Part shown: positions 1-57,514 of the stretch, in pieces
Layout of the letters: every line of letters starts with the position of its first letter
Numbering within the stretch: the first letter of the stretch is position 1
Program-made: the position numbers and the translations under genes
The notes under the pieces: model-generated
What the model was told of the DNA's origin: nothing
Seen by the model: only the letters and a program-made list of their open reading frames with translations
Databases searched by the model: none
NCBI RefSeq assembly: GCF_907164915.1
Contig: NC_061862.1
Coordinates: 7,551,505 to 7,615,504 of the forward strand
Origin: Impatiens glandulifera
Lineage: Eukaryota > Streptophyta > Magnoliopsida > Ericales > Balsaminaceae
Length of the DNA stretch: 64,000 nt
Reading direction: 5' to 3'

Positions 1-173
1 TAGGATTCAGGACAAACATATGATGGCGCTTCGCGAACTTTTGAGAGAGATGAGAGTCAGTAATTGAGAAATTCTTTGGATATGTCTTAGGGAACTCCGC
101 AACCCTTCGTTTCATCAGGTAACAAATTGCATCTATCTCCTGCGAAAAAACTATTGATTAAGCAATAGCAAGG

Positions 174-354
174 GTGGTGCATTGTGCGTGGGGAGAGTGC
201 GTGGGGTTGGGCATGGGAGTGGTGCGTTGTGTGTGGGGTGAAAGGGTGGTGCGTGGGGTTGGGCGTGGGGTTAGGCGTGGACTTGTGTGTGGGGGTGGTG
301 CGTTGTGCGTTGGGAGAGTGCGTGGGGTGCAAGGGTGGTGCGTGGGGCGCAAGT
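174..354. repeat. G-rich minisatellite inside the Ulp1 intron of copy U3
   Basis: Irregular tandem repeat of units such as GTGGGGTTGGGCGTGGGAG and GTGGTGCGTTGTGCGTGGGG, almost filling the 140-395 intron. The + strand is G/T-rich with almost no A or C apart from GCG. Open frames across it are repeat artefacts. The same motif fills the equivalent intron of copy U2 (17309-17455). Confidence 0.9.
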
Positions 355-1138
355 CCAAAGATACTTACACAAAAATAATGAACAAAAATACTTACCATAT
401 CGTGTAACCATTTTTGAGGCGTGAGAAATCTGTTAAATAAAGAACAATTTGTTTCGCAAGTACTCAAATTCTTGAAGTCTTTATCCTTACTCTTCAACCA
501 TTTCTTCAATTCCTTCATCTTTTCCTCGTCATATTGTAACATAGGATTAACCGTAACCGGATCATTAAGTTTAAACCCTTTCCCACTAGGGTCGGTGTAG
601 TCCTCCAATTTTTTCGACTTCTTTCTCCGAAATGATTTTCCTCTAAATTGTGAAGGAGACATTTCTTTCACATTATCCTCCTTATTCTCCACAATCTTCT
701 CCTTCTTCTTCTCCACAATCTCCTCCTTCTTCTTCTCCACAATCATCTCATTCTCCACAATCTCCTCCACCTCTGTAGTCTTCTCCTCCTCCACCTCTGC
801 AGTCTTCTCCTCCACCTCTACAATATTCTCCCCCTCTGTTTTCTCCACCTCCACCTCTGCAGTCTTCTCCTCCTCCTTATTCTCTTTAGTCTTCTTATTA
901 GTCTTCTCATCCTCCTTCTCAATAATCTCTATAGTCTTCTCCTCAATTTTCTCAACAATCTTCTCATTCTTATTCTCCTCGGTCTTCTTCTCAGTCTTAT
1001 CCTTAGTCTTCTCCTCCTCCTCCTCAATATTCTAATCAAATTGCAATTTGCGTGGGGCTTGGGGTGTGGGCTCCTCATCCTCTTCCTCCTCTTCCTCCTC
1101 CACAATAAAAAATCAGATTAATATACATTTAGGCTAGG

Positions 1139-1415
1139 TCGTGGGTGGTGCGTGTGGATAGTGTGTAGTGCGTGTGTGGTGCATGGGGATAGTGTGTGGG
1201 TGGTGCGTTGTGCGTGGGGATAGTGTGTGGGTGGTGCATTATGCGTGGGGAGAGTGTGTGGGGTTGGGCGTGGGAGTGGTGCGTTGTGCGTGGGTGGTGT
1301 GTTGTGCGTTGGCGTTGTGCCTGGGTGGTGCGTTGTGTGTGGGTGGTGCGTTGTGCGTGGGTGGTGTGTGGGTGGTGTTTTGTGTGTGGGGGTGGTGCGT
1401 GGTACGCAAATCTAC
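1139..1415. repeat. G-rich minisatellite, second array of copy U3
   Basis: About a dozen copies of a GTGGTGCGTTGTGCGTGGGT-like unit, at the position corresponding to 18328-18590 in copy U2. It separates the Glu-rich part of the gene from a Lys-rich coil (KKELAMKKRKDEMAKRK, - strand, about 1490-1415), so it probably lies in an intron. Confidence 0.88.
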
Positions 1416-1496
1416 CTTCCTCTTGGCCATTTCATCCTTCCTCTTCTTCATGGCCAACTCCTTCTTGGCCAACTCCTTCTTCTTGGCCAACTGTAT

Positions 1497-1541
1497 GAGA
1501 AATTTGATTAAATAACCTCAAAGATGAGGTTATTTGATCTG
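1497..1541 (+). repeat. Left terminal inverted repeat of MULE 1
   Basis: Begins GAGAAATTTGATTAAATAAC and ends TTATTTGATCTG. It is the reverse complement of 10749-10793 apart from the second base. It contains its own inverted repeat (AAATAACCTC / GAGGTTATTT), so each end can fold alone. Confidence 0.92.
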
Positions 1542-1605
1542 GTGGTGGCTTTTTATTTTTTTTTGCGCTCGTGGTTCTATATTTTTTTATACGATTTTGC
1601 CCTTA

Positions 1606-1637
1606 TCGCGAAACGCTAAGTGACTTAGCGTTTCGTG
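1606..1637. promoter_or_regulatory. Left subterminal palindrome built from the element's motif
   Basis: Two head-to-head copies of the motif, CGAAACGCTAAG and CTTAGCGTTTCG, separated by TGA. The same palindrome lies at 10651-10681 near the other end. Placement about 110 bp from each terminus would suit a transposase or accessory-protein binding site; that role is inference. Confidence 0.7.
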
Positions 1638-1654
1638 AAGTGGATTAGGGTTAG

Positions 1655-1662
1655 TATAAATA
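1655..1662 (+). promoter_or_regulatory. Putative TATA box for the left gene of MULE 1
   Basis: TATAAATA lies about 110 bp inside the left end, directly after the subterminal palindrome. It is followed by a pyrimidine-rich leader and a GC-rich tract (1720-1775). It points toward the DUF1985/Ulp1 gene starting at 3582, which implies a long 5' leader, probably with introns. Confidence 0.5.
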
Positions 1663-2261
1663 CTCTAATATTTTCATTTCCTTAGATTTATTTCTCTCTC
1701 TTCACATGTTCTCTCTTTCACGGCGGCCGGCGGCGATGACGGCGACGGATGTTGCGGGCGGGGCGGCGGTTCAATTCATACAGATCTATACAGATTTACA
1801 AGATCTTTTAACCTAATCCATTTATGTTTTTATCTATACAGATTTACAAGATCTATATAGAACTAACCCTAAATCTATTTTGCATGCAGGTTTCCGATTC
1901 TAGGGTTTAGGGTATGCAGGTCTCCGATTCTAAGGATTTGAAGGTCGAGGAAGATGTTCATTTCAAAATCTAATTCGAGTTATGTTCATGTCTACATTTT
2001 CTTCATTTCAAAAACTTTTTCATATTTCGTTCTGGTTCATATTTGGTCATATTTGTGGATTCTTATTTGTTATATGGTTCATATTGGTTAATGTTTGAGC
2101 ATTTCGTTAGGTTATTATTTGTTATTGGTTCATATTTGCAGAAAATCTCTGATTAGATCGTATGTGTTTCCGTTTCAGATTTGCTAAACGTTTCGCTACG
2201 GACTTACCGTTTCGCTAAGTAGTACCTCGCGATTCTCTAAGTGTCAAGATTTTTTGTTATA

Positions 2262-2660
2262 GTTAATCATGAACTTCATTTGACAATGTATCTACATCAC
2301 TTCATGGTTATGAAGAGAAGTTGTGTTAGCAAAACAAACCTTATCTTTTTACATTAATGGAAACATGTAGATTCTTTAAAAAAGGCCTTTGAAGAATCCA
2401 TCATTGAGCTCCAGATAAGCAAAGATTGGCTGACTTTGATTTCGTTAGTCATTAAGCTAAAGAAATAAATTTCAAACAATTTTCTCTTAGCTGGAGCTCA
2501 ATGATAATTTCTTCAAAGGCCTTTTTTGAAGAATCTAAATGTTTCAATGTAAAATTATAAGGTTTGTTTTGTTAACACATCTTCTTTTCAAAACCATGAC
2601 TTTGTTATTGATACCTTGTCAAACGAGATAGATTACCAATAAAAAATTTTGTACTTCACG
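2262..2660. repeat. Long imperfect inverted repeat (hairpin 1) upstream of the Ulp1 gene
   Basis: Arms of roughly 150-170 bp (about 2262-2414 and 2491-2660) around a 76-bp loop. The innermost 14 bp, TCATTGAGCTCCAG at 2401-2414 and CTGGAGCTCAATGA at 2491-2504, pair exactly. Outward blocks also match, including AAGGCCTTTGAAGAA and AAAACAAACCTTAT, with scattered mismatches and small gaps. Confidence 0.85.
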
Positions 2661-2675
2661 ATTCGCTTAGTACTA

Positions 2676-2773
2676 CGAGCTCCAGCTAGGAGAATGGTTT
2701 GAATTCGATTTCGTTATTAAACAAATATACTAGCGAAAATGTATTCAAACCATCTTCTCTTAGCTGGAGCTCG
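2676..2773. repeat. Short inverted repeat (hairpin 2)
   Basis: Arms at 2676-2704 and 2743-2773 (CGAGCTCCAGCT / AGCTGGAGCTCG, then the AATGGTTTGAAT block) with a ~38-bp loop. The GAGCTCCAG core is shared with hairpin 1. The size and mismatch pattern resemble a miRNA-like foldback; whether it is processed is unknown. Confidence 0.8.
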
Positions 2774-2778
2774 TTGAC

Positions 2779-2833
2779 CTCGCGATTCGCTAAGTACCTC
2801 GCGATTCGCTAAGTACCTCCCTACTCGCTACGG
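2779..2833. repeat. TTCGCTAAGT motif cluster, upstream region
   Basis: Two perfect CGCGATTCGCTAAGTACCT units and a decayed third. A smaller cluster lies at 2188-2244 and a lone copy at 2656-2674. Confidence 0.85.
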
Positions 2834-3178
2834 AAGTTGAAGAGACGCGCGTACGCACACGCGCTATACCTTATATATTAAAAAATTTCAGAACATTTCA
2901 TTTCAACCGCCCGACTCTCTCTATCTCTCTAACCCATTGTCTCTTCACTGAATCTTGTCAAGGCCGATCATTTCTGCTTTCTTCTCGTTCGTCATTAAGG
3001 TTGGTTCATTCTTCTCTCTGCCGATCATTTTCTACTTTTTTGTTTATGAGTTTCGGTTTTTGCATGTTAAGTGTAAATGCATGTTAAGTGTTTCTTGTCT
3101 TTTTCCTTGTTTTTATTAGTTTATGAAATGTATGGTCCATTTTTGCTGTCTTCTGTTCAGTATATTTTTTCGCCATTA

Positions 3179-3254
3179 GGGTTTCGCTAGGTACCTCCCG
3201 ATTCGCTAAATACCTCCCGATTCGCTAAGTACCTAGCGATTCGCTAAATACCTA
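3179..3254. repeat. TTCGCTAAGT motif cluster, four units
   Basis: Four units of about 19 bp (YCGATTCGCTAARTACCTM), all in + orientation, in the leader of the Ulp1 gene. Confidence 0.88.
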
Positions 3255-3418
3255 CTAGTGGCCGATCATTTTCTGGTTTTTTGTTTATGGATTTTGGTCT
3301 TTGCATGTTAAGTTTTAGTGTTTGTTTCAGATTTTTTGTTTAGGGTTTTTGCATGTTAAGTTTTAGTGTTTGTTTCTGATTAGTTATGTATGGTTAATGT
3401 TGTCTTATGTTCAGTTAA

Positions 3419-3532
3419 CGATTTCGCTAGGTACCTCTCGATTCGCTAAGTACCTTCCGATTCGCTAAGTACGTAGCGATTCGCTAAGTACCTAGAGATT
3501 CGCTAAGTACCTCCCGATTCGCTAAGTACTTA
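3419..3532. repeat. TTCGCTAAGT motif cluster, six units
   Basis: Six ~19-bp units ending about 50 bp before the predicted start codon at 3582. Unit ends differ (CTC, CTT, GTA, CTA) while TTCGCTA(A/G)GTAC is kept. Confidence 0.9.
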
Positions 3533-5300
3533 TGATGTTGTGTTTGTTTTTACATTTTTTATGATGTTGTTCCTTTTGTAGATGACAGAAACAACAGTTA
3601 CTGAGTTTCCTGGTCGGATTTCGTGGAAAAGTGCCCTCACCCTGAAGAAGATTGTTAATAAGTTCGAGGAAATGGATCTTTTTGAGAATGTTTACAATAC
3701 CCAGTTCAGATCATTATTCACAGCCCCCCTCTTGCAGTTCTCAAGAACTATTGTACATCATATGTTGATGAGGAGGGTAAGCTCAAACTCCAAGGAGATA
3801 ACTTTCATAGTGAATGGGCAAAAGCTTGTATTTGGTATGAAGGAGTATGCGTTGGTTACCGGCCTAAGTTTCGGCATTTTTCCTGAGCTGGACCAAGAAA
3901 AATTGCGTGGTTGTCCACCTCTCTCGGTGAAATATTTTAAAGGGAGCATGAGTATGAAAATGTGCGAGTTGGAGAAAGCTTTTTTCAAATGCAAAGACAA
4001 GGAAGATGCATTCAAGATGGGGCTGGTATGCCTGATTTGACAGTACCTATTCACATTTGACCCAAAAAGAGTTATATTTCCAAAAATACTCCACATGGTG
4101 GAAGATAAGGACACTTTCCTCCAATATCCATGGGGGAAGGTCACCTTTAGAGCCACCCTCAAGGGTTTAAACAAGAACATGAAACATCTCAGTAGCTCAT
4201 ATTTTGAGAAGAAGGAGAAGGCCGAAGATCCTTATGCTCCTTTTGCATATAACATATATGGGTTCGCATTGGCACTTCAAGTGTGGACGTATGAGGTCAT
4301 AAAAAACTTTATCCCTAAATTCGCCAGAAGGAATCAGATTAATGACCCTCTACGCCCAAGGTTGTTACTCTATCATTCCAACAGGAAAAACACCTCGATC
4401 GAGGTAAAGACTGCCCTTGAGACCACAGATGTGACTGAGATGGAAGAGTCCTCTATGGAGAAGAGGTTATACAGTAGTGAGGAATTTGAACAAATCGACG
4501 AGACAAGTGATGATTTTTTTGAGGGATTTACTGATGGAAAGGTAATAAAAGATGATTTTGATGAAGATGAAGAAAGTGAACATAAAGAATGTACTCCCAA
4601 TCCCCCCAAACCTGCCACCAGGAAGAGAAAGGCTGAAGCTACTCTTAAAGAAGCAGTCAACTTGAAGAAGAAGCTTGCTTATGAATCGTTTCCAGCCCGC
4701 ATTCTTACTCCCCCCTCAGCGACCTCAAGTCCTCGGGCTCAGACACCTCCTCCTCGGGCTTAGACACCTTCTCCTCGGGCTCCAACACCTTCTGTTGGAT
4801 GTAAATGTAATGAGCTGAAGGAGGAGCTGAAAATAGAGTTGAAAGAGGAGCTGAAAGAGCTGAAAACAGAGCTCATCAAAGAGCTGAAAATCACAATCAA
4901 AGAAACTCAACAAACTCACCTTGAGTCGTTCAAGAAGATGGTTTTTAGTATGTCCCAACAGTTGTTAGATAAATCCAACAAAAAGATGTCCATATTATTA
5001 ACAAGATTAGATGATATGGAGGAGAATATAAAGAAGAAGAAGAGTAAGAAGAAGGATTCTAAGAAGGATGTGAAGGTCGAAGAGGATAAGACTACCGAGG
5101 TATGGAGATATTGAATTTTGCACTTTACATTTCATTTCTCTAAGTACATATCTGATTTAACCAGTACCTATTTTGCAGGTTAAGGATTCTAAGAAGGATG
5201 TCGAAGTTGAGAAGAGCAAGGTTGAATAGAAGGAGGAGAAGACAGAGGTATTAGTTAAGTACATATTGATTTTTACACTCAGCAAAATGCTGAGTACTAA

Positions 5301-5580
5301 TCGTTTCGCCAAGTACTTATCGTTTCGCCAAGTACTTGTCGTTTCGTTAAGTTAGTACTCTGCATTTCGCCAAGTACTTGTCGTTTCGCTAAGTTAGTAC
5401 TCTGCGTTTCGCCAAGTACTTGTCGTTTCGCCAAGTACTTGTCGTTTCGCCAAGTACTCTGCGTTTCGCCAAGTACTTATCGTTTCGCCAAGTACTTATC
5501 GTTTCGCCAAGTACTTATCGTTTCGCCAAGTACTTATCGTTTTGCTAAGTACCACTAGCTAAGTTCATTCGCCAAGTACT
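5301..5580. repeat. TTTCGCCAAGTAC minisatellite filling intron 2 of U1
   Basis: Fourteen units, mostly 19 bp (CGTTTCGCCAAGTACTTAT), some extended to 23 bp by a TTAG insertion. All are in one orientation, between the donor at 5248 and the acceptor ending at 5605. Most units here read GCCAAG rather than the GCTAAG of the other clusters, a sign of local homogenisation. Confidence 0.92.
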
Positions 5581-6337
5581 GACCAGAATGTTGGCTATTT
5601 TATAGGAGATGATAGCGATGCAGGGGACTGTGGGGGATGATGAGAAGGTGAATGATGGGAAGAAAGATGATGTGGCTGGTGGGGATGATGTTGCTAAGGT
5701 GGAGGATGATGAGAAGGTGGATGATGTTGCTAAGGTGGAGGACGTAAAGGTGGAGGACGTAAAGGTGGAGGATGATGTTGCTAAGATGGAGGACGTAAAG
5801 GTGGAGGATGATGTAAAGGAGGAGGACGATGAGAAGGTGAAGGACAATGAGAAGGTGGAGGACGATGAGAAGCTGAATGGTGTGGCTAAGGTGGATGATG
5901 TGGGTGAAGGATCTGAAAGTGAAGGTGAAGGATGAGGAGAGTGTGGGTGTGGATGTGAAGGCACAGACAAATGAGGAAATTATGGGAGGAGATGACAATG
6001 ATGACAATGATGATTTCCAATTATACGATACTCCTCCTAAAGGAAATTATGGGAGGAGAGTGAGGAAGCCGAAAAAAGATGACTCGTACACCAACTCTTC
6101 TTTGTCAAAAGTGCCCAGGACAAAGGATCCAATGAAAGTGAATCACCTTCAAAAATTTGAAGATGAGCTATTGGATAAAGTAAAAGCGTGGTTGGTTGAT
6201 CCAGAAACCGATAATGAGACAAAGGATGTACATCTTTGCCAAGCAAAGAAGGATATGTTTGTTAGAGTTATAACAAGGTTGACATGGCTTGAAGACATTG
6301 TAAGTCGTGCAAATCAATTCGTTATTCATGAATACTC

Positions 6338-6450
6338 ATCGTTTCGCCAAGTACTTATCGTTTCGCTGAGTACTTAGCGTTTCTCTACGGACTCATCGAT
6401 TCGCTAAGTACTCAGCGATTCGCTAGGACTCATCGTTTCGCTTAATATTT
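6338..6450. repeat. TTTCGCTAAGT cluster in intron 3 of U1
   Basis: Six units inside the 6300-6504 intron that splits the acidic region from the Ulp1 catalytic exon. The equivalent intron of U2 and U3 holds a G-rich minisatellite instead. Confidence 0.9.
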
Positions 6451-7176
6451 AGTCAATGTTGTTTGATATATACTGAATGTATGTTGTATACTCCCATTGT
6501 GCAGGAAATTGATGCATTCTGCCATATATTGCGGAAAAGGATTTTCGACTATCCCAAGACATATAAAAATTCACATGTGACAATAGGGGATTGCGTATTG
6601 TCGGATAGAATCAAGCGAGAGCACATGGTTTTTATTAAGGATCCTGCAAACTATCCAGTCGCCGAATTCAAAGACTATTACATGGGTGCACCACATAGAT
6701 ATATGCCCGAATGGTCAACAATTGACGATGTCTACATGCCTGTCAACATTAACCAGAGACACTAGATTTTGTGTGTAGCACGTCTTCAAAAGTACCGCAT
6801 TGACGTGTACGACTGTGATGCCTATCTTTATAAGAATCTGGATCCTTATTTGAAACCGTTCTACGACATGATTCCACATATATTTGCAAAGACAATCACT
6901 CCTAGTGAGAGGGTAAGGTATCCTAAATTCAACTTCGAAACCCCCATCCAACCAATGACGTACAAACGGTTACCACACCCCAAAGTGAAAACCGCAGCAG
7001 CTAAAGTTGGAGAAGTCCCACGGGCAACCGAGAGCAGGGACTGTGGGGTATTCACGCTAATGTATATGGAACACTTGACCGTTAACCAAGCCTTGCACAA
7101 TGTGACCTCAGATAACATGGAGTTTTTTAGGCAGAAGATGGCGGTCAGGTTATTCCATCAGATTATCGAACCTTAG

Positions 7177-7667
7177 TGTAAACATTATTTTGAAGTAAAT
7201 TGTGTAAATTGGATAAATTATTTTGATGTATTGTAAACCTTGATGAATATTTTTGAAGTTGGATGATAAATTATTTTGATGTATTGTAAACCTTGAGTAC
7301 GCTAACCTATATTGAATTTTGAACTTGAATTGAAGAAAACCTTCAACGTGAAAAACAAGTGTAACCCTTGAATTGACCCTTCAACGTACAAAAAAGACTA
7401 CCTCGAATTGACTCTTCGTTTCGCTAAGTTACGGTCATCGTTTTGCTAAGTACTTATCGTTTCTCTAAGTACTTATCAATTCGCTAAGTACTTATCGATT
7501 CGCTAAGTACTCAACGTTTCGCTAAGTAAGTACTCATCGTTTCGCTAAGTTAGTGCTCATCGTTTCCCTACTCATATACTACAACATAGTTTCTACCTTA
7601 ATTAACAACATAGTATCTTACCAGTACCATAGTTCAATTAACAACATATATTACAACATAGTATCTA
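7177..7667. other. Spacer between the convergent genes of MULE 1, with motif array
   Basis: 3' ends of both genes meet here. 7190-7300 holds a short duplicated AT-rich segment (TTATTTTGATGTATTGTAAAC occurs twice). At 7415-7570 there are eight units of the TTTCGCTAAGT motif. No coding potential. Confidence 0.8.
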
Positions 7668-10488
7668 TCAAGCTAAAGGTTCATATTGTTGAGATGATGA
7701 CTCATGCTGCTTAGATGATGAAGCTCTTGTAGTAGATGGTGCAGGCATCACTACTTTGCATGTTGCCCTATTATGTCCTAGCCCAGCACATGAGCTGCAT
7801 CGTCTCGGGACCTTACGGACTTCACCTTGGGATGACCTACGCTTTGTTTGTGGCATGCCTTTCTTAACCTTGACATTTGGTTTAAGACACGAACGTTGCT
7901 TGATATGTTCGGGAACTACCCAATTTTCTTCATCACCAGGAGGATAACATGTCTCCACATATGAATTTATCCAACACTCAGTTGTGTAATACTTGTGTGT
8001 AGGGAAAATATAACGAATTATTAATTGGTTAAACAGATTGAACACGTGAGCTAAATAATACCTTGAACAGAAGTCATAAGAAACCAAATTCCGACTACGG
8101 GCAACAGCCATTGCATGCGTACAAGGAAGACCCGAAACTTCAAATACTCTACAAGTGTAGTTCATGTCTTTCAAATTGACTTTGAAATGGGACTGATTGT
8201 CACGCACATAAAACTCGAATCGGTTAAGCGAATGGACTGTATAGAATCTGGCCTTCTTGAATCCCTCACGTAACACCTTCTCATAATTTGGAGATAAAAC
8301 TTCTTCGTGATTTGACGCTCTTTCTCTTCTATCGTTAAACCAATGTTGTATTGTGAATCTTAAATACTCAGCCATTTCTGAAATATGATACTTTCTGGCT
8401 TCCCTGCTCTGACTATTGAAACTCTCAACATAATTGCTTGTGAGTTGATTGTATCGTTTACCGGGAAAAAATGCTCTACTCCATCTTTGAAACCCAATTT
8501 CTTCCAAATAGGAAGCAATCCTATGATCTTTAATCTTAATCTTGTCAAAAAATCGATTAAATTCGTGGACAGTGTACGCCCTAGAAGCCGAATCAAACTC
8601 CGCATGACACTTATCACTTTTGAATTTGGCCACAATATTCATCTTTATGTGATATGTGCACGCACCGTGGTCTGCTTCTGAGAAAACAGCACACAAGGCA
8701 TCAGCGATGCTTGGGTGTCTGTCGGATACAAAGACGAGATCACCAACTAATCCAATTGCGTCTCTCAGTTTTTGCATAAAATAAGTCCAGGAGTTATTAT
8801 TCTCTGAATCAACAACGCCGAATGCGACAGGATATAGTTTCTCATTCGCATCCAATGCAATAGCCACCAATAATTGACCACCCACCTTGTGCTTAAGAAA
8901 ACTAGCATCAACACATAATACAGGACGAAAAAAGGATTTGAAACCCCTAATTGAGAGGCCTAGGGACATGAACATATACTTGAAATGGCCGAGCTCGTCT
9001 GTCTGGATGTCGGTTATGGTACCAGGATTACACTTCTCCAACATGTAAAGGTATGATGGTAGTATTCCATAGGAATCCTCTACCGTTCCTCGCACCGCTA
9101 TTAAAGCATTTTCCCTTGCCCTCCATGCCTTATTATAAGTCAAAAATATCCCATAAGTTGACTGCATGTCTTCAATTATTTTCTTAGGCAAATGATTATG
9201 ATGATGGTCCATGTACTTGCTCTTCACGCACTGCCCAATAACCCATACTGGTGTTTGCATTTTTTCTTGGGCCTCGACAAAACTGAGCATTAGTGTTGTT
9301 GCTCAAATATACGGATCTCAAACATCTCAGAAAACTTACCTTTCACAGCCCGCAAGCTCCACTTGCACGTCTCATCCAAACATTTGAGTTCCCAAAGATG
9401 TTTTCTTGACTTCTCCACTTTGAAATCGAAATGATTGGTTATCGCATATTTATATAGAGCAAGTTGAAGTTCTTTTTTATTTTCAAACAACGAACCGACT
9501 TCCAATACGGTTTCACTAGTTAATGCCATCGCAAATGAGGGATCTGACGGTGATGTGTCTGTCGGGTCTGTCGATGGTGTACCCATTGAAGATCGTCTTG
9601 CACTATATGGTGTACCCATTGATGATCTTCTTGCACTAGATGGTGTACCCATTGATGCCTTTCTTGCACTAGTTGGTGTACCCAATGATGATCTTCTTGC
9701 ACTTGGTTGTATAGGTATTGATGTTTTTTCACCAGTATTAACATGCAAGTCCTGAGTAAGTGGGATGTGAGGCAAAGAGCTTTCTCCGGCTTCATTTTGA
9801 CTTTCAACAAAGAATTCCGAGGGTACAACGGGTGGTACAAATTTTTGAGTAAGTTGTGGTGGTAGTATACTTTCTTGAGTTGGGTATATAAGTAGTGATA
9901 TCTTTTCTTTAGTAAATGTTGACTTCTCCACTACAGATACACACAATGGTGACACGGTTCGACCCAAAATCAAGCGTGATAAATATGTGTTCAAATCCCC
10001 GTCATTATCAATAAAAACAGGTTTTGGATTTCTGATATTCGGAATATCGTACTTCACTTGGAGCACTAAATTGTATGTAGATTTCTGCACAGTAAGTCTA
10101 TCGTAGAGTATATCAAGTAATTCAGCATAACGAGTACTTTGGGGTAAATCAAATGTTTTGATTGAAGATGCATCAAAATACAGTATTCCATCAGCATCAA
10201 GTTTCTACTCTCCATTATAGAAAACAAAAACTTCAGCTGCAATAAAAAACATGAATTGATTTAGAAACGGATAATCAATACTTCGCGAATCGCTAGGCTC
10301 TTAGCGAAACGGGAAGACCTTTGCAAATCGTTAGGCACTTAGCGAAACGGGAAGGCCTTCACGAATCGCTAGGCACTTAGCGAAACGGGAAGCAAACCCT
10401 AAACAATCAAAGAAACCAAACATCAATAAAACATGCTTAAAATAAACGTACCTATTGGAACAGTGCTCGTGCTCGTCGTGGAGCCCAT
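7668..10488 (-). pseudogene. mudrA-type MULE transposase, inactivated
   Basis: Short exon 1 (10488-10452, MGSTTSTSTVPI), intron 10451-10237, and a long exon 2 (10236-7668). The split codon rejoins in frame. Domains: an N-terminal region with a Ser-rich repeat (SARRSSMGTP, about 9690-9560); the MuDR DNA-binding domain (about 9520-9300, with KWSLRAVKGKFSEMFEI); the MULE catalytic core with Asp in CVDASF and in VSDRHPSI; the C-x2-H motif (CTYH); a SWIM zinc finger (GLPCTHAMA); and a terminal CCHC knuckle (CSSCAGLGHNRATC). Full length would be near 860 residues, normal for the family. Lesions: TAG at 10207-10205, TAA at 9292-9290, and a one-base shift in an A-run near 9270-9262. The two large open frames touch as TAATG, but that is the result of the lesions. 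Confidence 0.93.
10281..10392. repeat. Inverted motif pairs in the transposase intron
   Basis: Three ~37-bp units inside the 10451-10237 intron. Each pairs a GCGAATCGCTAGG-type copy with an oppositely oriented CTTAGCGAAACGG copy. The arrangement repeats the head-to-head geometry of the subterminal palindromes. Confidence 0.88.
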
Positions 10489-10650
10489 AGTGTATTTAGA
10501 CCCGTCACCGCCGAGATCGCCGCCGCCGGAGTTTAGAGAGAAGGAGGAGAAGAGCGGGAAGAGAGAGAAGGAAAAGAAAAGAAATGAAAAAAATGACTGA
10601 GGTTATATTAGATAGTAAGGGTAATCTGGACATTTCACATATTGTCACTT

Positions 10651-10681
10651 CGCGAAACGCTAAGTCACTTAACGTTTCGCG
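10651..10681. promoter_or_regulatory. Right subterminal palindrome of MULE 1
   Basis: CGCGAAACGCTAAGTCACTT followed by AACGTTTCGCG, the counterpart of 1606-1637. It lies about 110 bp from the right end and roughly 165 bp upstream of the transposase start codon. Confidence 0.7.
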
Positions 10682-10748
10682 ACAAGGGCAATTTCGTCCA
10701 AAAAAAAATAAAAACTCCACGAGCGCAATAAAATTATCAACTTACTAT

Positions 10749-10793
10749 CAGATCAAATAACCTCATCTTTGAGGTTATTTAATCAAATTTCCC
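10749..10793 (-). repeat. Right terminal inverted repeat of MULE 1
   Basis: Reverse complement of 1497-1541 with one difference (GGGAAATTT versus GAGAAATTT at the tip). Confidence 0.92.
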
Positions 10794-12690
10794 GTTTCGG
10801 CGGCCTGCTTCTCCTATGGAGATAGTTCGGAAAATATTCGTCTATTTCTTTTACAAAATATATAACAAAACTGGCCCTTAAACTATACACATTTGCCTGT
10901 TTTCCATCCTAAACTTTCTTCTCTGTTTTCCATCCATTTTAAATTTTTAACCCTAAACTAGTTCATGTACTTTCTTTTGAGTGATGTGTATTTTTTTTTA
11001 TAGGCCTTTTTCTTTTATGTTGGTATGGTTTGGATTATTAAAAAAATAACCTAAATAAAATTAAATATCATTTAACTTCACTTTAATCTATCACATCACT
11101 CAAACCATTAACTAAAATAATAAAATATTTTATATTTTAAATTATTATTTTATATTTTATTTATATATATCAATACTCTTTAAATCTTTTTATAAAAAAT
11201 AATCATCACCTTCTCATAATCATTCTTTTTTTTCTACCTCTTTATTTTCAAATAAACCCATTTGAACAAACTCATAATTTTATTTTATCGCAATCTTAAT
11301 ATATTTAAAAAATATTTTATCGATTTAATGAAAATTTTAAATCAAGTAAAAGATATTGTGGATTATTTAAACCTTTACTAAATAAAGGTGGGCCTGTAAA
11401 ACTTAAGGGGTGAGTTTATATAAAAGTGATCCATTTTATTTAATAGAATCCAATGGCCACGATCTATTCAGTTTATCCAACGGCCCAAAATTCACCACCA
11501 TCGATTTATAAGGGCAAACCCTAGCCATCTTCATCTCTAGTGCTAATAATAAGATTATTGGATCGTACAGCCTCTAGATAGATAGATGAATCATACATAT
11601 TGTCTGAAAATTGGTTGATTTCATATATATATATATATATGTAAGTGACAAATAACAGTTTCACATGATTTCATTCGCTAAATTATGCCCATATTTGTTA
11701 GATTCTTTCTTTCTCTGTTTTTTGAATTCACATTATCAATCCTAAATTGTATACAAAAACAGTCAACTGGTAGAAGAATAAATAAATATTTAGACATTCC
11801 AATTTTAATTAATTATTTGTTTAATATTCAGCCATAAGTCCAACAATCATCCCCCCAATCAATTAGTTTTTTTTAACATTTAGACATAGTAAAATAATAT
11901 AATATAAATAATTAAATTAAAGAAACTAAGAAAACCTATCCGTCAATCTGACTGAAAGAAAAAAATAAAATATTTAATTATATCTCATAAGATTTTTTTC
12001 GTAGTACAGAAATATTATTTGACAGAAAAGCTTTTGTTGTGTTAATATAAATTAAGCTAAAATCATTATCAACTCTAGCTTATTACTTTTTTTTTATTAT
12101 TGTTATACAGTTTAAATAATATTTATTTGAAACAATTATTATTATTTTTATATTCTAACAACTATCTATTTAAAATTTCTCATAATTAGTATTTTTTTTT
12201 ACCCCTTTAAAACAACCCTTGCGTTTGAAATTGAATTTAAGAAGTTTACAAAAATGAGTAAAAAGACAACAAAAAAAAATGTGATTATAAATTATGAATA
12301 AAAGCAAATATCAACAACAAAAATGACTATATGAGCAACAGATGAAGTTGCTCTAATGTTTAATGAAATAATGGGCAGAGGTGTATTTCCTCTAATGTCT
12401 AATGTTTAATGAACACTGATACTTTTCGCATTCATTTTATAATATGTTTATTAAAATAAAAATATTCTTTAATTATTTATTTAAATCACACAACAAATTT
12501 TTGAGAGTTTATACTAGTACGAAGAGATACATAATGCACATTTCTCGAGACATTCATCATTTAATTTAATTGACAAGTGATATTGTTTCTAATCTTTATG
12601 GTTTGTGTTTCTATCCATACGAGCAACAGTATAATCTTATATGAAAAGAGAATATATATATATAAATGAATTTTAATGGCATTATCTAAG
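10794..12690. other. AT-rich noncoding stretch
   Basis: No coding sequence recognised. It holds long A/T tracts, a short (TA)n run near 11620-11640 and an AT-rich stretch with a stray satellite-like phrase (tgtgtttctatccatacgagcaaca, about 12603-12627). The last 300 bp resemble the diverged ~240-bp repeat seen at 50350-51000. Confidence 0.6.
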
Positions 12691-12995
12691 TAAAGAAATT
12701 ACCTTTATGGTAAGCATTTTCATTATCAGGATAAAAAATTTGAAGTTTCTTATGGAGAAAAATATCACTATAGTCCTGCAACAAACATGGTTATCAGAGT
12801 TATTTGGATTCAACTATACCATAATGTACAATAGGGGAATGATAAATGTTGTGACCCGAGAAGGTACATGAAGTAGTATAAATAGATAGGCAAATATGAT
12901 GTAATAATTTCTAATTTCTTTCTAATGGAATGGGCTCAGCCCCTCCGTTCTTATTCTCAATCTATCTCGTCTATATTTATTCTCTTCTATCATAA
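12690..12995 (+). mobile_element. Gypsy fragment: RNase H end joined to LTR-like sequence
   Basis: Matches the 14095-14410 copy almost base for base. It starts in the RNase H region (YLYGKHFHYQ-like), runs to the MYNRGMINVV-type end, then jumps to a promoter-like segment (GTATAAATAGATAGG) and a CTCAGCCCCTCCG block that recurs near 14350 and 46200. That block looks like the downstream part of this family's LTR. Confidence 0.6.
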
Positions 12996-13017
12996 TTCTC
13001 ATGGCAGCCAAATGTGG

Positions 13018-13190
13018 GGGTAACGAATTTAGACAAAGAATGAAGAGATTGTGATTTAGACAAAGAATGAAGAGATTGTGAGAGGTTAGGCATCCAAATG
13101 TGTTATCAGCCATGGAGCAAGAGTATGGGACTTGAGCAGGCTGAACATGGCAGCCTCCATTGGAGATGTTCATTAGAAGAGAGCTTCACC
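13018..13190 (+). pseudogene. Captured receptor-like kinase fragment (short copy)
   Basis: Encodes FRQRMKRL twice in tandem (a 28-bp duplication), then VRHPNVLSAMEQE and PPLEMFIRREL. It is the same host-gene fragment as in 56062-56640, here reduced to the part nearest the Gypsy junction. The kinase is out of frame after stop codons. It is directly followed by Gypsy reverse transcriptase sequence. Confidence 0.6.
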
Positions 13191-14415
13191 GAGAAAGGGG
13201 CTTTAGTAGTAGAGATAAAGAGTGTTTATAAGAAACAATAAAGTTTATTTGCTTCTCCGGTTATCCTAGTTAAGAAAAAAAGATGGAACATGGATGTTTT
13301 GTGTAGACTACATACAACTAAATGAAATCACAATCAAGGATAACTAGATAAGTACCCTTACATGTACTAGTGGACGATTTACTAAATGAGCTTCATGAAA
13401 CAATGATTTTCATCAACCGCGACTTATGTGCGTATTATCATCAAATAATGGTAAGAGAAGATGACATTCACAAGACTTTTTTCAGAATGAGTGTATGAAT
13501 TCAGAATAATGACATTCGGATTATCAAATTCAACTGCAACATTCTAAGTATTTATAATTGAAATATTTTTTAGAATGGCCAATGAAAGGTATTATTAGTA
13601 TGTTTTTTATGATATTCTTATATACAGTTCTAATATGAAACTACATCTAAGGTATTTTGAGAAAATTATGAAAATTCTAAAAAAAACAGTCTATTGATAA
13701 ATTGATCAAAATGCTTATTTGTATTAAAGAAGCATGAATATCTAGGTCATTTCTTGGGCATCAAAGCATTAAGAGGCTATTTTGGGTAGGGTATTATCGA
13801 AGATTCGTATGCAGCTTGGAACTATTAACAAACCATTACATGGTTTTACTCAAGAATGGTATGTTTAAATGGACTGAAGATGCAGAGAAGACATTTAAAA
13901 CTTTGAAAAAGGCTCTAACCACCACTCCGATAGTAGTATTACCTGATTTTTCGATTGACCTCAAAGTAGAAAAAGATGTCAGCATTGGCGCAGTATTGAT
14001 GTAGAAAAGAATACCCATCGCATATCTAGGCAAATCACTGGCTAAGACACATTATGATTGTCTACCTACGAGAAGAAACAGTATTAATGTCATTATCTAA
14101 GTAAAGAAATTACCTTTATGGTAAGCATTTTCATTACCAGGATAAAAAGTTTGAAGTTTTTGATGGAGAAAAATATCACTACAGTCTTGCAACAAACATG
14201 GTTATTAGAGTTATTTGGATTCAACTATACCATAATGTACAATAGGGGAATGACAAACGTTGTGACCTGGGAAGGTACATGAAGTAGTATAAATAGATAG
14301 GCAAATATGATGTAATAATTTCTAATTTCTTTCTAATGGAATGTGTCTCAGCCCCTCCGTTTTTATTCTCAATCTATCTCGTCTATATTTATTCTCTTCT
14401 ATCATAATTCTCCCT
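13191..14415 (+). pseudogene. Decayed Gypsy reverse transcriptase / RNase H (copy with RLK fragment)
   Basis: The RT starts near 13260 (SPVILVKKK), followed by remnants of the QLNEITIKD, YHQI and MTFGLSN motifs and then RNase H (13816-14060, FKWTEDAEKTFKTLKKAL). It shares with the copies at 44.3, 52.3, 54.3 and 56.7 kb a TAA in the ATFQ motif and a TAT codon where the first Asp of the catalytic YxDD box should be, and with those at 45.0 and 57.4 kb a TAG after GAVLM. It ends in LTR-like sequence at 14258-14415. Not functional. Confidence 0.8.
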
Positions 14416-15919: not shown

Positions 15920-16481
15920 TTATTAACTATGAGCAGGTTCCTGAATTCCCAACTAATAAAATCCAAAGAGAAGAGGTTCCTGAATTCCCTATATTTGAGC
16001 AGGATGTCTTACAAAGTCAAAATGACAAACACCATGCAGATGAAGAACAACAAGTCCCATGTTTGCGTCCGGGTGAATTGGTTGCTAGTACCCCTCCTTT
16101 TGTACCCTGACCACCCATCACTTCCCCTATGAGGAAAACATCCAGTCATGTTGAGTTGCTTGATTCATTTGAACTAGTCTAGGTTGAAACACATGCTCAA
16201 TTAACCCTTGAAAGCGAATTGGAAGTGGGTACGTTTTTTGAGGACAAAAAAGAACTTCAATTGAGGGTGCATAGATATGCGATGGCTAATCATTTTGAAT
16301 TCAAAGTCGAAAAGTAAACAAAAGATCTTTGGTTTGTGAAATATGTGAATGAGAACTGCAAGTGGAGATTGCGTGCTGTGAAAGAAAAATTCCAGAAGAT
16401 GTTTGAGATTCGAAAATTAGTAAATGAACACGCATGCTCAATTTTGACGAAGCAAGAGAATGTGAGGCAAGCACAATCATG
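15920..16481 (+). pseudogene. Truncated MULE transposase, N-terminal and DNA-binding part
   Basis: Encodes the MuDR DNA-binding domain (ELEVGTFFEDKKELQL, then NENCKWRLRAVKEKFQKMFEI and HACSILTKQENVRQAQSW), homologous to the transposase of MULE 1. Stops interrupt it (for example TAA after KVEK near 16315). Similarity ends at 16481 in a G-rich minisatellite; the catalytic core, SWIM finger and zinc knuckle are missing. It converges with the Ulp1 gene at 16644-19915, the same layout as MULE 1 but inverted, so these are the remains of one sister element. Confidence 0.85.
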
Positions 16482-16525
16482 GGCTTGGGCGTGGTGCTGG
16501 GCGTGGGCTTGGGCGTGGTGTTTTA
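16479..16525. repeat. G-rich motif at the deletion point of the second MULE
   Basis: GGGCTTGGGCGTGGTGCTGG and relatives, the same motif as in the introns of copies U2 and U3. It sits where transposase coding breaks off and about 120 bp before the end of the convergent Ulp1 gene. Confidence 0.75.
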
Positions 16526-17308
16526 TTTTTGAACAATATTGATTGTATTGGAATGCTTCTTTACAATTTATATTTCATAACAAATATTTCATAACAAAAT
16601 GTAATTTTATTCATAACAAAAATTTATATCTATTCAATTTAGATTAGGGGTCTACAATTTGGTGGAATAACCTTACTGCTCATTTCTTTCTCCTAAAAGT
16701 CATTTGTTTGGTGACCACATTTGATACATCCAATGAGGTAGTAAGATATTCCAAATGCATAATAGTAAAAACACCATAGTCCCCACTTTTAGTTGTCTTT
16801 GGGACTGTTGGGTGTGGTATTATGGAATATGGCATCTTCTCCAAGTTGAACCGCAGAATCCTGGCCTTTTCCACCAAGGTGAATCCAAATTCAAGCAAGT
16901 ATGGCATCATTTCACACATTGGTTTCATGAAGTCGTCATATACATCCTTTGGGAAGATTTTTTGTTCGCAGTCATATACGTATATGCATCATTCTTGTAG
17001 ATGAATCTAGCACAAAACCCAGTGCTTCTGCTTCAGGTTAATAGGCACATATATCATATCAACAAGATTCCAATGATACAAATGTCTTTCTTCATCACCA
17101 ATTACATATTCCATGAAATCATCGAACTTGAAGCCTGCAAGATTCGGGACAAACATATGATGGCGCTTCGCGAACTTTTGAGAGAGATGAGAGTCAGTAA
17201 TTGAGAAATTCTTTGGATATGTCTTAGGGAACTCTGCAACCCTTCGTTTCATTAGGTAACAGATTGCATCTATCTCCTGTGAAAAAACTATTGATTAAGA
17301 AAGAGCAA

Positions 17309-17455
17309 GGGTGGTGCATTGTACGTGGGGAGAGTGCATGGGGTTGGGCGTGGGAGTGGTGCGTTGTGTGTGGGGTGCAAGGGTGTTGCGTGGGGTTGGG
17401 CGTGGACTTGTGTGTGGGGGTGGTGCGTTGTGCGTGGGGAGAGTGCGTGGGGCGC
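17309..17455. repeat. G-rich minisatellite in the Ulp1 intron of U2
   Basis: Counterpart of 174-354 with fewer units; fills the 17277-17500 intron. Confidence 0.9.
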
Positions 17456-18327
17456 AAGTCCAAAGATACTTACACAAAAATAATGAACAAAAATACTTAC
17501 CATATCGTGTAACCATTTTTGAGGCGTGAGAAATCTGTTAAATAAAGAACAATCTGTTTCGTAAGTACTCAAATTCTTGAAGTCTTTATCCTTACTCTTC
17601 AACTATTTCTTCAATTCCTTCATCTTTTCCTCGTCATATTGTAACATAGGATTAACTGTAACCAGATCATTAAGTTTAAACCCTTTCTCACTAGGGTCGG
17701 TGTAGTCCTCCAATTTTTTCGACTTCTTTCTCCGAAATGATTTTCCTCTAAATTGTGAAGGAGACATTTCTTTCACATTATCCTCCTTATTCTCCACAAT
17801 CTCCTCCTTCTTCTTCTCCACAATCTCCTCCTTTTTCTTCTCCACAATCATCTCCTTCTCCACAATCTCCTCCACCTCTGTAGTCTTCTCCTCCTCCACC
17901 TCTGCAGTCTTCTCCTCCACCTCTGCAATATTCTCCTCCTCCACCTCTGCAGTTTTCTCCTCCACCTCTGCAATATTCTCCTCCTCCACCTCTGTTTTCT
18001 CCTCCTCCACCTCTGCAGTCTTCTCCTCCTCCTTATTCTCTTCAGTCTTCTTCTCAGTCTTCTCATCCTCCTTCTCAATAATATCTGTAGTCTTCTCCTC
18101 AATTTTCTCAACAATCTCCTCCTTCTTATCCTCCTCAGTCTTCTCCTTAGTCTTCTCCTCCTCCTCCTCAATATTCTAATCAAATTGCAATTTGCATGGG
18201 GCGTGGGGCTTGGGGTGTGGGCTCCACATCCTCATCATCTTCCTCCTTTCCTCCTCTTCCTCCTCCTCCTCCTCTTCCTCCTCCACCCGCACAATAAAAA
18301 ATCAGATTAATATACATTTAGGCTAGG

Positions 18328-18590
18328 TCGTGGGTGGTGTGTGGGGATAGTGTGTAGTGCGTGTGTGGTGCATGGGGATAGTGTGTGGGTGGTGCATTGT
18401 GCGTGGGGAGAGTGTGTGGGGTTGGGCGTGGGAGTGGTGCGTTGTGCATGGGAATAGTGCGTGGGTGGTGTGTTGTGCGTTGGCGTTGTGCATGGGTGGT
18501 GCGTTGTGCATGGGCGTTGTGTGGGTGGTGCGTTGTGCGTGGGTGGTGTGTGGGTGGTGTTTTGTGCGTGGGGGTGGTGCGTGGTACGCA
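18328..18590. repeat. G-rich minisatellite, second array of U2
   Basis: About 12 irregular units of GTGGTGCGTTGTGCGTGGG type, counterpart of 1139-1415. Unit number and order differ between the two copies. A further short G-rich piece lies at 18194-18222. Confidence 0.88.
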
Positions 18591-19915
18591 AATCTACCTT
18601 CCTCTTGGCCATTTCATCCTTCCTCTTCTTCATGGCCAACTCCTTCTTCTTGGCCAACTCGTCATCCTTCCTCTTCTTGGCCAACTTCATCAGCCTCTCC
18701 TTCCTCTCATCCTTCTTTCTCTTAATCTCATCAACCTCATCATGCTTCCTCTTCTTCATCTCCTCATCCTGCTTCCTCTCCTCATCATTCTTCCTCTTGT
18801 TCATCACCTCATCATTCTTCCTCTTCGTCCCCTTCTCAGTATCAAGTGCAGCAGTACCTGCCTCTTCTTTTTATTCTCCTCCACTATTCTTTTGTTCATT
18901 TATTTCCCCCAATAATGTGATTATAAGTTATTGATTCTCCTTAATGAGCTTGATTTCAGTTTTAATCTCATTTACATCCTTTGTCAGTTCATCAAGTTTA
19001 GCATCAGTATGGGCTTGAGACACTCGATTGGGTGCACAAGATGTAAAATTGTCTTTATCAATTTGAGGAGTCGTCGCAGAAGGGACTTGCTGAGAGTTGT
19101 CTTGGCTAGTTTCATCGTTAACTTCAGGGAGCTGGGGACTAATAAGTCTCTTCTTCTTGGCTGACAGTTTGGGAGTCCTTTCATCTTTTTCATCTTCCTC
19201 ACAACCTTCAATCTTTCTCCTTCTCCCATCCAATTCAAAGAATTCATTATAAACGTTGCCTCTCATATCTTCAAAGCTAGAGTACTTCCGCTTCTCCTCC
19301 TTAGACTCATCAATTTTGCTTAGAACATTGCACTTCTAGAGGGCTGTGAATACCTCCTATAGAGGATAATTCTTGTAGGATGTATAGAGCACTATCCTTG
19401 GATTTGTAGGATCTTGCTGTGTCCTTTTAGCAAATTTGGGGACGAATGTATTAATAAGCTCAAAGGCCTACGCTTGGGAGGCTAGTGCGAACCCATGTAA
19501 AGTATAAGCGACATCACAGACGCTTTTCTTGTCCCAAGTTTTCTTCTTGGCGAGATATAACACACGGAGGTGTTTCATATCTTTGTCAATACCCTGTAGG
19601 GTTTCTATGAATGACACATTTCCCCATGGAAATTGGAGGAACATCTCCATGTCCTCCACCATTGGAAAGATTCTGAAACTTACATTCCTCCTATTATCAG
19701 ATGCGAACAGATACTGGTAAATGAGGAATATGAGCCCCATCTTCCATGAATCCTCCTTATCAGAGCATTCAACGAAAATGGCTTCAAGCTCTTTCAATCT
19801 AACATTCATTTTACCCTTAAAATATTTGCGAATAAGGGGTGGACATTCTTCAACCTCCAAGTTTTCCACCAAATGAAATCTACCAAAGTTGAGGTAAAAC
19901 TGGTTGATATACTTC

Positions 19916-21090
19916 AGGTGATGATTTTGTTTCATTTAGGGATTCTGCTAGCTTTCTGTACTCAATGACCATGTCATTTAGTGCAGCTATCAGTTCTTCC
20001 CTTGAAAATCTTTCAGAAGAGAAATCAAATACCTCAGTTTCCTGAGTCTGTTCTTCATCTTCTCTTTCCATGAAGCAAGCCACTTCTTCGTCATCACTAT
20101 CACTGGATGAGAAGTAAGAGTCATGTATGCTTTGTCTGTTCTTTCCATCTCCTGCTATTAGAGCCTTCAGCTCCTTTTCATCATCCTTCTTATCTACACG
20201 CTTAGGTTTCCTGCATTTCGATTGGTAATGACCTGCAATACCACAATTATAACATTTTACATTAGCCTTTTATTTCTTATTATCATTAGAATTTGAAGAG
20301 CTTGAGTTAGGGTTGCTCTTCTTTATGAAGTCGTCAAACTTCTTCACGAAGAGAGACATGACATCGCTGCTCAGTTGTTGTGCTTCCATCTTCACATCAG
20401 TAGCTACAAGTGGCTCTTCAGTAGTCACCAGAGCTTTGGCAATGATAATGGATGTGGATTGATCTTCCTCAATCCTACAGTTCAGCTCGAACTCATAGGC
20501 CTTGAGATCAGCAAACAGGTCGAAGAGAGAGATCTTTTTGAGATCTTTGGATTCCCTCATAACCATCGTCTTTATGTCTCATTCCCTCGGAAGAGCACGC
20601 ATGACCTTAATAGCAAGCTCCCTGTTGCTATAGGTCTTGCCAAGGATAAATAAGGAGGAGGCAATCTTGTTGAATCTGGTGTCGAACTCGTTCATTGTTT
20701 CACTAGGGCGCATCTTGAAACTGTAACACTGTTGAGTGGCAACCATGATCTTGTTTTCCTTGATTTGCTCGTTGCCCTCATACAGTTGGGTGAGTCTGAC
20801 CCAGACCTCTTTAGCAGTATCACACTTGATAATGTAATTGAACATGCTTTCATCGAGAGATCTGTACAGAACATCAAGAGCCATGTTGTTGAGGTTGTTC
20901 TACCTCTTTTCTTCACTGTCCATTTGGATTTCTCCTTATCGATCTTGATAGGACCCTCTATGATTACATTCCACATGTCGTCATGAAAAGAAGAAAGATG
21001 AGCACGAACTCTCTTCTTCCATACGATATAGTTTTCTCGAGAGAAGGTTGGAATGGCGGTTGCACTGGCATCTTTGGTTATGGTCGACAT
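19916..21090 (-). pseudogene. Copia gag (element C), truncated
   Basis: The frame opens at 21090 (MSTITKDASATAIPTFSREN). A UBN2-type gag domain follows (LYEGNEQIKENK, FNKIASSLFILGKTY) after a frameshift near 20890, then a CCHC knuckle (CYNCGIAGHYQSKC, about 20255-20215) and an acidic Ser/Asp stretch. The frame continues past stops near 20580 and 20270. Protease, integrase and RT are absent: the sequence breaks at about 19915 into the DUF1985 exon of U2. Orientation, PBS and LTR (21136-22620) agree. The gag type resembles large plant Copia elements of the SIRE/Maximus kind, but without pol this is uncertain. Confidence 0.85.
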
Positions 21091-21120
21091 TCTTTAGGAA
21101 AAGTTTGAGAATAGAAACAA

Positions 21121-42274: not shown

Positions 42275-43039
42275 ACAATTACATTCATATGAGAAATGAT
42301 CAAATCGATAAAAACTAAGGATAAGAAGATCGAGAAAACAAATAGATGAATCATTACCAGTTGAGTAGTTTCGAGGAGGCTCCGTGAAAGAGTTTAAAAT
42401 TCGTCAGAGAAGCGATCTTGATCACCCGCGAAAAGAAGAAGATGAAAGGGAGATAAATAGATTTATCCTGGAAATTTGATCAAATGACCCTCAAAAATAA
42501 CCTTAATAATTTAAATTTTTATATTTAAACTTTTTTTTTTAAATTTGGACAATTTTACCCTTTTCATTATTTATTTTTTTAATCTTTTTCCTTCCTCATT
42601 TTACATTTCCCAATCCCACCAACCCACTTTCTCTCTTCTCCTTTACCCTGCGACCCAATGCCACTTCCATCAGCATCACCTGCCATCACTCCGCAACGCC
42701 GGTCACCAGCAACGCCGGAGGACGACGAGATCAAACAGCATCGCCGTGTAGACCTGACCGGCAGCATCGTCTTCAAAATGGATATGTTCATTTCTTTCAT
42801 TCTCAATTTAGCTGAAGAACACTCTATATGTTTGGTACGTTTGAAATATTGTGTCATACGTTTGAAATCTATCAAAATGGGTATGTTTACTGAACGACCC
42901 ACGACTCACGCACAACGACCCACGCACCACGCAAAATGGATATGTTTACTGATTTTTCAGGTTGATCTCAAAATAGAAAATGATGCCAACATTCAGTCAA
43001 CCTACTTAATTCAAAAAATTCAAGATACAACGGTTGCAA
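42275..43039. other. Mixed noncoding segment
   Basis: 42358-42440 may be the leader of the SPT16 locus. 42655-42775 is a GC-richer stretch of unknown origin. 42896-42941 carries a G-rich motif (on the - strand GCGTGGTGCGTGGGTCG) like that of the second MULE family. 42955-42995 is a scrap of Gypsy RNase H (VDLKIENDAN). Confidence 0.5.
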
Positions 43040-53045: not shown

Positions 53046-53061
53046 GTTGATTTCAAACAAC

Positions 53062-57510: not shown

Positions 57511-57514
57511 AGTA

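What the first reader, a model, noticed from the sequence alone, without database searches (positions are those of the whole stretch)
1497..10793. A DUF1985/Ulp1 MULE saturated with one short noncoding motif: a candidate VANC-like anti-silencing system
Seen: TTCGC(T/C)AAGT recurs about 45 times in MULE 1, in eight clusters (2188-2244, 2779-2833, 3179-3254, 3419-3532, 5301-5580, 6338-6450, 7415-7570, 10281-10392) plus both subterminal palindromes. All sites are leader, intron, intergenic spacer or terminus; I saw none in exons. Known: in Arabidopsis VANDAL MULEs, VANC proteins (with DUF1985, as I recall) bind short motifs clustered in noncoding parts of their own family and remove DNA methylation. 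Inference: the DUF1985/Ulp1 protein of this family recognised, or was selected with, TTCGCTAAGT. This would extend such a system to Ulp1-carrying MULEs.
Basis: partly seen in the sequence, partly recalled or inferred. Interest (0 to 1): 0.9.

Follow-up and report, generated by a model that had tools for sequence, protein, structure and literature searches.

The report
Transposon carrying its own anti-silencing tags
A broken jumping gene in a plant close to Himalayan balsam carries a relative of a known DNA-binding anti-silencing protein and, in its noncoding parts, dozens of copies of one short DNA word that this protein family probably reads to keep the element from being shut down; such systems are already known from Arabidopsis.

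The parts
1499..1642 (+). left terminal inverted repeat, with terminal hairpin and subterminal palindrome (core CGCTAAGT as inverted pair, about 1607-1637)
   Evidence: 85% identical over 147 columns to 10646-10791 reversed; single-strand DNA fold z -6.5 (1499-1545) and -6.8 (1600-1650)
1643..3581 (+). leader of the DUF1985/Ulp1 gene with motif clusters 2188-2244, 2779-2833, 3179-3254, 3419-3532
   Evidence: 15 sites at up to one mismatch (9 exact) in 1497-3581
3582..5103 (+). first coding exon of the DUF1985 (VANC-like) gene; broken by in-frame stops; 3' limit approximate
   Evidence: Pfam DUF1985 7e-9 in one piece, 1.7e-5 (below the curated cut-off) in the next; tblastn of Impatiens relatives; VANC21 profile match
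5104..5179 (+). intron 1 (one isolated motif site at 5136)
   Evidence: limits by inspection; site
5180..5249 (+). short second exon (tentative)
   Evidence: resemblance to relative P0008 by eye; not in the tblastn hits
5250..5605 (+). intron 2 with the largest array, 5301-5580
   Evidence: 14 sites at up to one mismatch (12 exact); TRF period 19, 13.3 copies
5606..6300 (+). third exon, acidic repetitive region
   Evidence: tblastn of P0002, P0008, P0009, P0020 with a frame change near 5902
6301..6504 (+). intron 3 with array 6338-6450
   Evidence: 3 sites at up to one mismatch (2 exact); relatives resume at 6502-6505
6505..7176 (+). last exon, Ulp1 (C48) protease domain with His, Asp and Cys of the triad, broken by an in-frame stop
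   Evidence: Pfam Peptidase_C48 1.1e-11; SENP1/SENP2 match
7177..7667 (+). intergenic spacer between the convergent genes, array 7415-7570
   Evidence: 7 sites at up to one mismatch (5 exact)
7668..10204 (-). MURA transposase gene, broken by a frame change near 9290-9302
   Evidence: Pfam MULE 1.5e-20, SWIM, DBD_Tnp_Mut; 55 relatives listed
10205..10645 (-). leader of MURA with 38-bp array 10281-10392 (motif on the minus strand, alternating with inverted half-sites)
   Evidence: 4 sites at up to one mismatch (2 exact); TRF
10646..10791 (-). right terminal inverted repeat with palindrome; one further one-mismatch site at 10647
   Evidence: fold z -4.9 for 10640-10690; no target site duplication seen in the flanks
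4..1492 (-). piece of a second DUF1985/Ulp1 MULE family (MULE 2 copy a), next to the left end of MULE 1; noncoding arrays with CCCACGC
   Evidence: 86% identical to 17141-18686; 12 CCCACGC, 0 in inferred exons
16100..20050 (-). MULE 2 copy b: DUF1985 (19468-19935), acidic region, Ulp1 remnant (about 16647-17279), MURA fragment on + strand (about 16200-16453), arrays near 16487-16520, 17305-17465, 18185-18215 and 18325-18595; outer limits approximate
   Evidence: Pfam DUF1985 1.8e-13; Ulp1 by tblastn with P0026 and P0029, which hold Pfam C48; MURA by self-match; 11 CCCACGC, 0 in inferred exons

Best explanation
The element is a decayed, TIR-bearing MULE of the KIU/VANDAL kind (DUF1985 plus Ulp1 gene convergent with MURA). 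Its family's DUF1985 protein is a VANC-type DNA-binding protein. The arrays of CG(A/T)TTCGC(T/C)AAGTAC in noncoding parts are its binding sites. Protein loaded on dense, same-orientation sites would remove DNA methylation from copies of its own family and allow the genes and ends to work, leaving other elements untouched; a second family in the window uses a different protein and a different word. Shown here: motif distribution, homology to VANC21, a different motif in a related family. Inferred: binding of this motif by this protein, demethylation, and any part played by the Ulp1 (deSUMOylase-like) domain. This copy itself is broken, so it could act only as a target in trans.
Confidence: 0.75

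Rival explanations
1. The repeats are transposase (MURA) binding sites: the TIR palindrome core was copied inward, so the arrays serve transposition, or MURA-type anti-silencing, rather than a DUF1985 protein.
For: The 8-bp core CGCTAAGT lies as an inverted pair in the TIRs, and with inverted half-sites in the MURA leader array. TnpA of Spm and MURA of MuDR are named as anti-silencing proteins in PMC10706983 (passage).
Against: 25 of 45 sites lie in introns or the intergenic spacer, up to about 4.4 kb from the nearer end, as direct repeats; in VANDALs the protein mapped to such sites is VANC (PMC5735166). The DUF1985 protein is a VANC21 relative.
Confidence: 0.12
2. Passive minisatellites: a 19-bp unit expanded by slippage and spread by gene conversion; coding sequence excludes it only because insertions there are lost.
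For: Clear tandem repeats with period 19; units within one array look most alike (by eye).
Against: At least nine separate noncoding places; motif positions kept between arrays while spacers vary; one strand throughout the DUF1985-gene side, 40 of 40 sites in 1497-7667; and an independent word in matching places of a second family. Slippage alone does not predict this.
Confidence: 0.08
3. Arrays of sites for a host transcription factor that drives the element, for example an E2F-like site, since TTTCGCCAA resembles one.
For: The C-type motif with its flank reads TTTCGCCAAG; resemblance to E2F sites is recalled, not tested.
Against: 33 of 46 listed units are T-type at position 6, which do not fit the site as I recall it; sites inside introns and after genes; MULE 2 uses an unrelated word.
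Confidence: 0.05

Closest known systems
VANC21 / VANDAL21 (Hiun) and VANC6 / VANDAL6 anti-silencing systems of Arabidopsis (PMC5735166, PMC10398659)
   Same: MULE; DUF1985 protein; short motif as same-orientation tandem repeats in introns, intergenic and terminal noncoding DNA; each family with its own motif; arrays gain and lose units
   Different: Other motifs there (YAGTATTAY; AGTTGTCC/AGTTGTAC); here long TIRs, an Ulp1 domain, a CpG-containing motif, palindromic core copies at the ends; function shown there, only inferred here
KIU / Kaonashi MULEs: Ulp1-carrying VANC genes (passages of PMC13317346 citing Hoen 2006 and Sasaki 2022; passages of PMC2528002)
   Same: VANC gene with Ulp1 domain; Ulp gene in reverse orientation to mudrA in KI-MULEs; reported motif-specific hypomethylation
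   Different: Arabidopsis KI-MULEs are non-TIR; this one has 85% identical TIRs, as some melon and grapevine ULP MULEs do (PMC2528002), and some members of the VANDAL clade have TIRs too (PMC6446971). Host here is close to Impatiens glandulifera (asterids, Ericales)
Impatiens glandulifera proteins with DUF1985 and/or Ulp1 (for example P0002, P0009, P0026, P0029)
   Same: Closest named relatives, 44-92% identical in the matched stretches
   Different: Database gene models, most named 'uncharacterized'; their DNA and motifs were not available

Membership tests
VANC-type anti-silencing system (VANDAL/KIU) | MULE with a mudrA-type transposase | tested here: met
   Pfam MULE, SWIM, DBD_Tnp_Mut
VANC-type anti-silencing system (VANDAL/KIU) | encodes a DUF1985 protein homologous to VANC | tested here: met
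VANC-type anti-silencing system (VANDAL/KIU) | short motif dense in noncoding parts, same orientation, tandem | tested here: met
   45 of 45 sites at up to one mismatch noncoding; 40 on + strand, 5 on - strand in the MURA leader and right end
VANC-type anti-silencing system (VANDAL/KIU) | related families have different motifs | tested here: met
   CCCACGC: 23 in MULE 2, none in MULE 1; TTCGCYAAGT: none in MULE 2; the second word was chosen after seeing the arrays
VANC-type anti-silencing system (VANDAL/KIU) | motif enriched in the family and rare in the rest of the genome | tested here: inconclusive
VANC-type anti-silencing system (VANDAL/KIU) | protein binds the motif and removes methylation in trans | not testable with these tools
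   needs DAP-seq/EMSA and bisulfite sequencing
KIU/Kaonashi MULE | Ulp1 domain in the DUF1985 gene, reverse to mudrA | tested here: met
   Peptidase_C48 at 6766-7176 + strand, MURA on - strand; one gene with DUF1985 by relatives such as P0002 that span both parts
KIU/Kaonashi MULE (Arabidopsis type) | non-TIR element | tested here: not met
   TIRs 1499-1642 / 10646-10791, 85% over 147 columns; ULP MULEs with TIRs are known in melon and grapevine

The most novel reading that the evidence does not exclude
In this lineage the anti-silencing protein and the transposition ends share one DNA word: the CGCTAAGT core, used as direct repeats in noncoding DNA and as inverted pairs in the TIRs, is read by the DUF1985/Ulp1 protein both to strip silencing marks (perhaps by deSUMOylating silencing factors with its Ulp1 domain) and to free or mark the ends for transposition. 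At least two such protein-word pairs would coexist in one genome.
Probability: 0.15. Interest if true: 0.7.

Novelty: new member of a known kind. Interest (0 to 1): 0.42.

Why it matters
It adds a candidate VANC-type anti-silencing system in an asterid host close to Impatiens, with Ulp1 and TIRs, and it offers two protein-motif pairs side by side (48% identical DUF1985 domains, unrelated words) for asking how DUF1985 proteins change specificity, now that VANC21 has been solved on DNA. Such pairs are candidate tools for targeted demethylation. That a reader of raw sequence could predict the system from motif layout is also of use.

Tried and rejected

Other copies in public collections: the array pattern gave 0 hits in viral contigs; the DUF1985 alignment found no confirmed relative in viral contigs or in prokaryote genomes, as expected for a plant element.

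Fold search: Foldseek against PDB gave no match at E <= 0.001 and did not show VANC21 in its 50 best rows; only the second look by VIA-align did. The model is weak. MULE 2 DUF1985 alone had no phmmer match in PDB, nor had the second half of the MULE 1 protein.

CpG between the two MULE 2 copies: transitions in 4 of 50 CpG columns in arrays, 6 of 35 in exons, 2 of 6 in other noncoding; too few and too dependent on the alignment to argue from.

Helical phasing at 10.5 bp: not seen in the five larger clusters. Insertion of MULE 1 into a MULE 2 copy with a target site duplication: the left flank is MULE 2, the right flank does not continue it (by eye; no such match in the self-comparison) and no duplication was seen, so I do not claim a simple insertion. 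An earlier count said that MULE 1 inserted there; I withdraw that.

E2F-like site: considered from memory only. Simple minisatellite: weighed as a rival.

Papers: PMC5735166, parts 1-3 of 6 read, plus passages; PMC10398659, part 1 of 6, plus passages; PMC13317346, PMC2528002, PMC6446971, PMC12312487, PMC12844716, PMC8756742 and PMC10706983, passages only. Sasaki 2022 EMBO J and Fu 2013 are not held; what I say of the first beyond the review is recalled. Hoen 2006 was seen only as a citation.
Full report
What is there. The stretch 1497-10793 is a Mutator-like element. Its ends are inverted repeats (1499-1642 and 10646-10791, 85% identical over 147 columns) with a terminal hairpin (same sequence at both ends; folded for the left end) and a subterminal palindrome at each end. 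On the + strand it carries a gene with DUF1985 (Pfam 7e-9 in one piece and 1.7e-5, below the curated cut-off, in the next) and, at its end, an Ulp1 protease domain (1.1e-11); on the - strand, convergent with it, a MURA transposase (MULE 1.5e-20, DBD_Tnp_Mut 1.1e-12, SWIM). Both genes are broken by stops or frame changes, so this copy is a relic. Of 25 protein relatives found with the DUF1985 part, 21 are named Impatiens glandulifera and 4 have no name, so the host is this species or one near it; that is an inference from names.

The motif. TTCGCYAAGT occurs 30 times exactly in the window, all in the element, and 45 times in the element at up to one mismatch, with 5 elsewhere. Shuffling only the noncoding part of the element gives 0.6 expected at up to one mismatch (60 shuffles, maximum 3). 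Exon limits were drawn from tblastn of the Impatiens relatives; the short second exon is tentative. With them, 0 of 45 lie in exons. Because sites in an array are not independent I also give a cluster-level figure, 0.409^9 = 3e-4. Five sites with exactly two mismatches do lie in coding sequence.

Structure of the arrays. Most sites are tandem units: 26 of 36 neighbouring spacings on the + strand (sites at up to two mismatches) are 19 bp. TRF, which knows nothing of the motif, gives six 19-bp arrays and one 38-bp array whose consensus units all contain the motif. Among the six, the motif varies at one of ten positions (T or C) and the spacer at five of nine; two arrays (5293, 7416) share one spacer. 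The cluster at 2188-2244 was not found by TRF. Weighted by cluster, motif positions hold 1.3-2.0 bits and several flanking positions 0.2-0.35; a CG just upstream and, less, an AC just downstream are also kept. Site choice favours the ten motif columns in that count, so the TRF comparison and the flanking columns are the fairer evidence. In 1497-7667, 40 of 40 sites point the same way as the DUF1985 gene; the 5 on the - strand lie in the MURA leader and right end. The arrays are rich in CpG (observed/expected 1.97) and the coding sequence poor (0.58; other noncoding 1.01; rest of window 0.65). In 44 units, two CpG transitions (C to T) and three transversions at that CpG are seen. This fits arrays that escape methylation, or arrays that are young.

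A second family, a second word. The window holds two pieces of another DUF1985/Ulp1 MULE: 4-1492 and 17141-18686 are 86% identical, and the fuller copy reaches DUF1985 at 19468-19935 (Pfam 1.8e-13) and an Ulp1 remnant seen by tblastn with Impatiens proteins. Its DUF1985 is 48% identical to that of the first family over 141 residues. Its noncoding parts carry arrays with CCCACGC: 25 in the window against a mean of 1.25 in 20 shuffles (maximum 4), 23 of them in these two pieces, 0 in inferred exons, all 23 on the gene-sense strand, none in the first element; TTCGCYAAGT is absent from it. I picked this word after seeing the arrays, and the exon limits are approximate. Between the two copies, gap columns number 87 beside 408 aligned in arrays, 75 beside 872 in exons (in coding repeats, by eye) and 45 beside 134 in other noncoding parts.

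Ulp1. The domain keeps His, Asp and Cys of the triad in the window, by its match to SENP1, and 15 of 21 relatives that show any of the three signatures show all three (32 examined). A working protease is likely in the family. What it does is unknown; removal of SUMO from silencing factors is my guess.

How it most likely works. By analogy with VANC21, which binds same-orientation YAGTATTAY arrays in noncoding DNA and causes methylation loss, and VANC6, which uses other words (PMC5735166, parts 1-3 of 6 read), the family's DUF1985 protein reads TTCGC(T/C)AAGT arrays and clears silencing from its own kin. Binding and demethylation are inferred.

What is known already. Ulp MULEs with TIRs are described in grapevine and melon, and KI-MULEs have the Ulp domain reversed to mudrA (PMC2528002, passages). 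One paper search paired Impatiens with VANC or VANDAL (9 papers listed); none of its titles is about this system in Impatiens. The other searches did not use the plant's name. I rate it a new member of a known kind. Features that set it apart are the TIRs, the shared core between arrays and TIR palindromes, the CpG in the motif, and 19-bp spacing without 10.5-bp phasing in the larger clusters.

Noticed in passing
22089-22446: Twelve units matching TTAGACNNNACGTCTAA with at most 2 mismatches (9 exact), nearly palindromic, 26-49 bp apart, beside a Copia gag-like ORF (20692-21093, minus strand; the Copia label is by eye): another motif array in noncoding DNA, perhaps of a different transposon class (my notebook says eleven, which is a miscount).
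   Followed up: partly
2219-2676: A stretch of the MULE 1 leader is its own inverted repeat (76% identical over 471 alignment columns); transcribed it would fold back and could seed small RNAs.
   Followed up: no
47708-50338: Tandem satellite with a period near 188 bp.
   Followed up: no
12673-14421, 43027-45307, 51029-60426: Large dispersed repeats, roughly 75-95% identical to one another in the self-comparison, not identified.
   Followed up: no
1485-1500 and 10790-10830: MULE 1 abuts a MULE 2 piece on its left only; the right flank does not look like MULE 2 and no target site duplication is visible, suggesting a later rearrangement.
   Followed up: partly
42919-42933: A lone stretch with CCCACGCAC and a second CCACGC far from the MULE 2 copies, perhaps a stray array remnant.
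   Followed up: no
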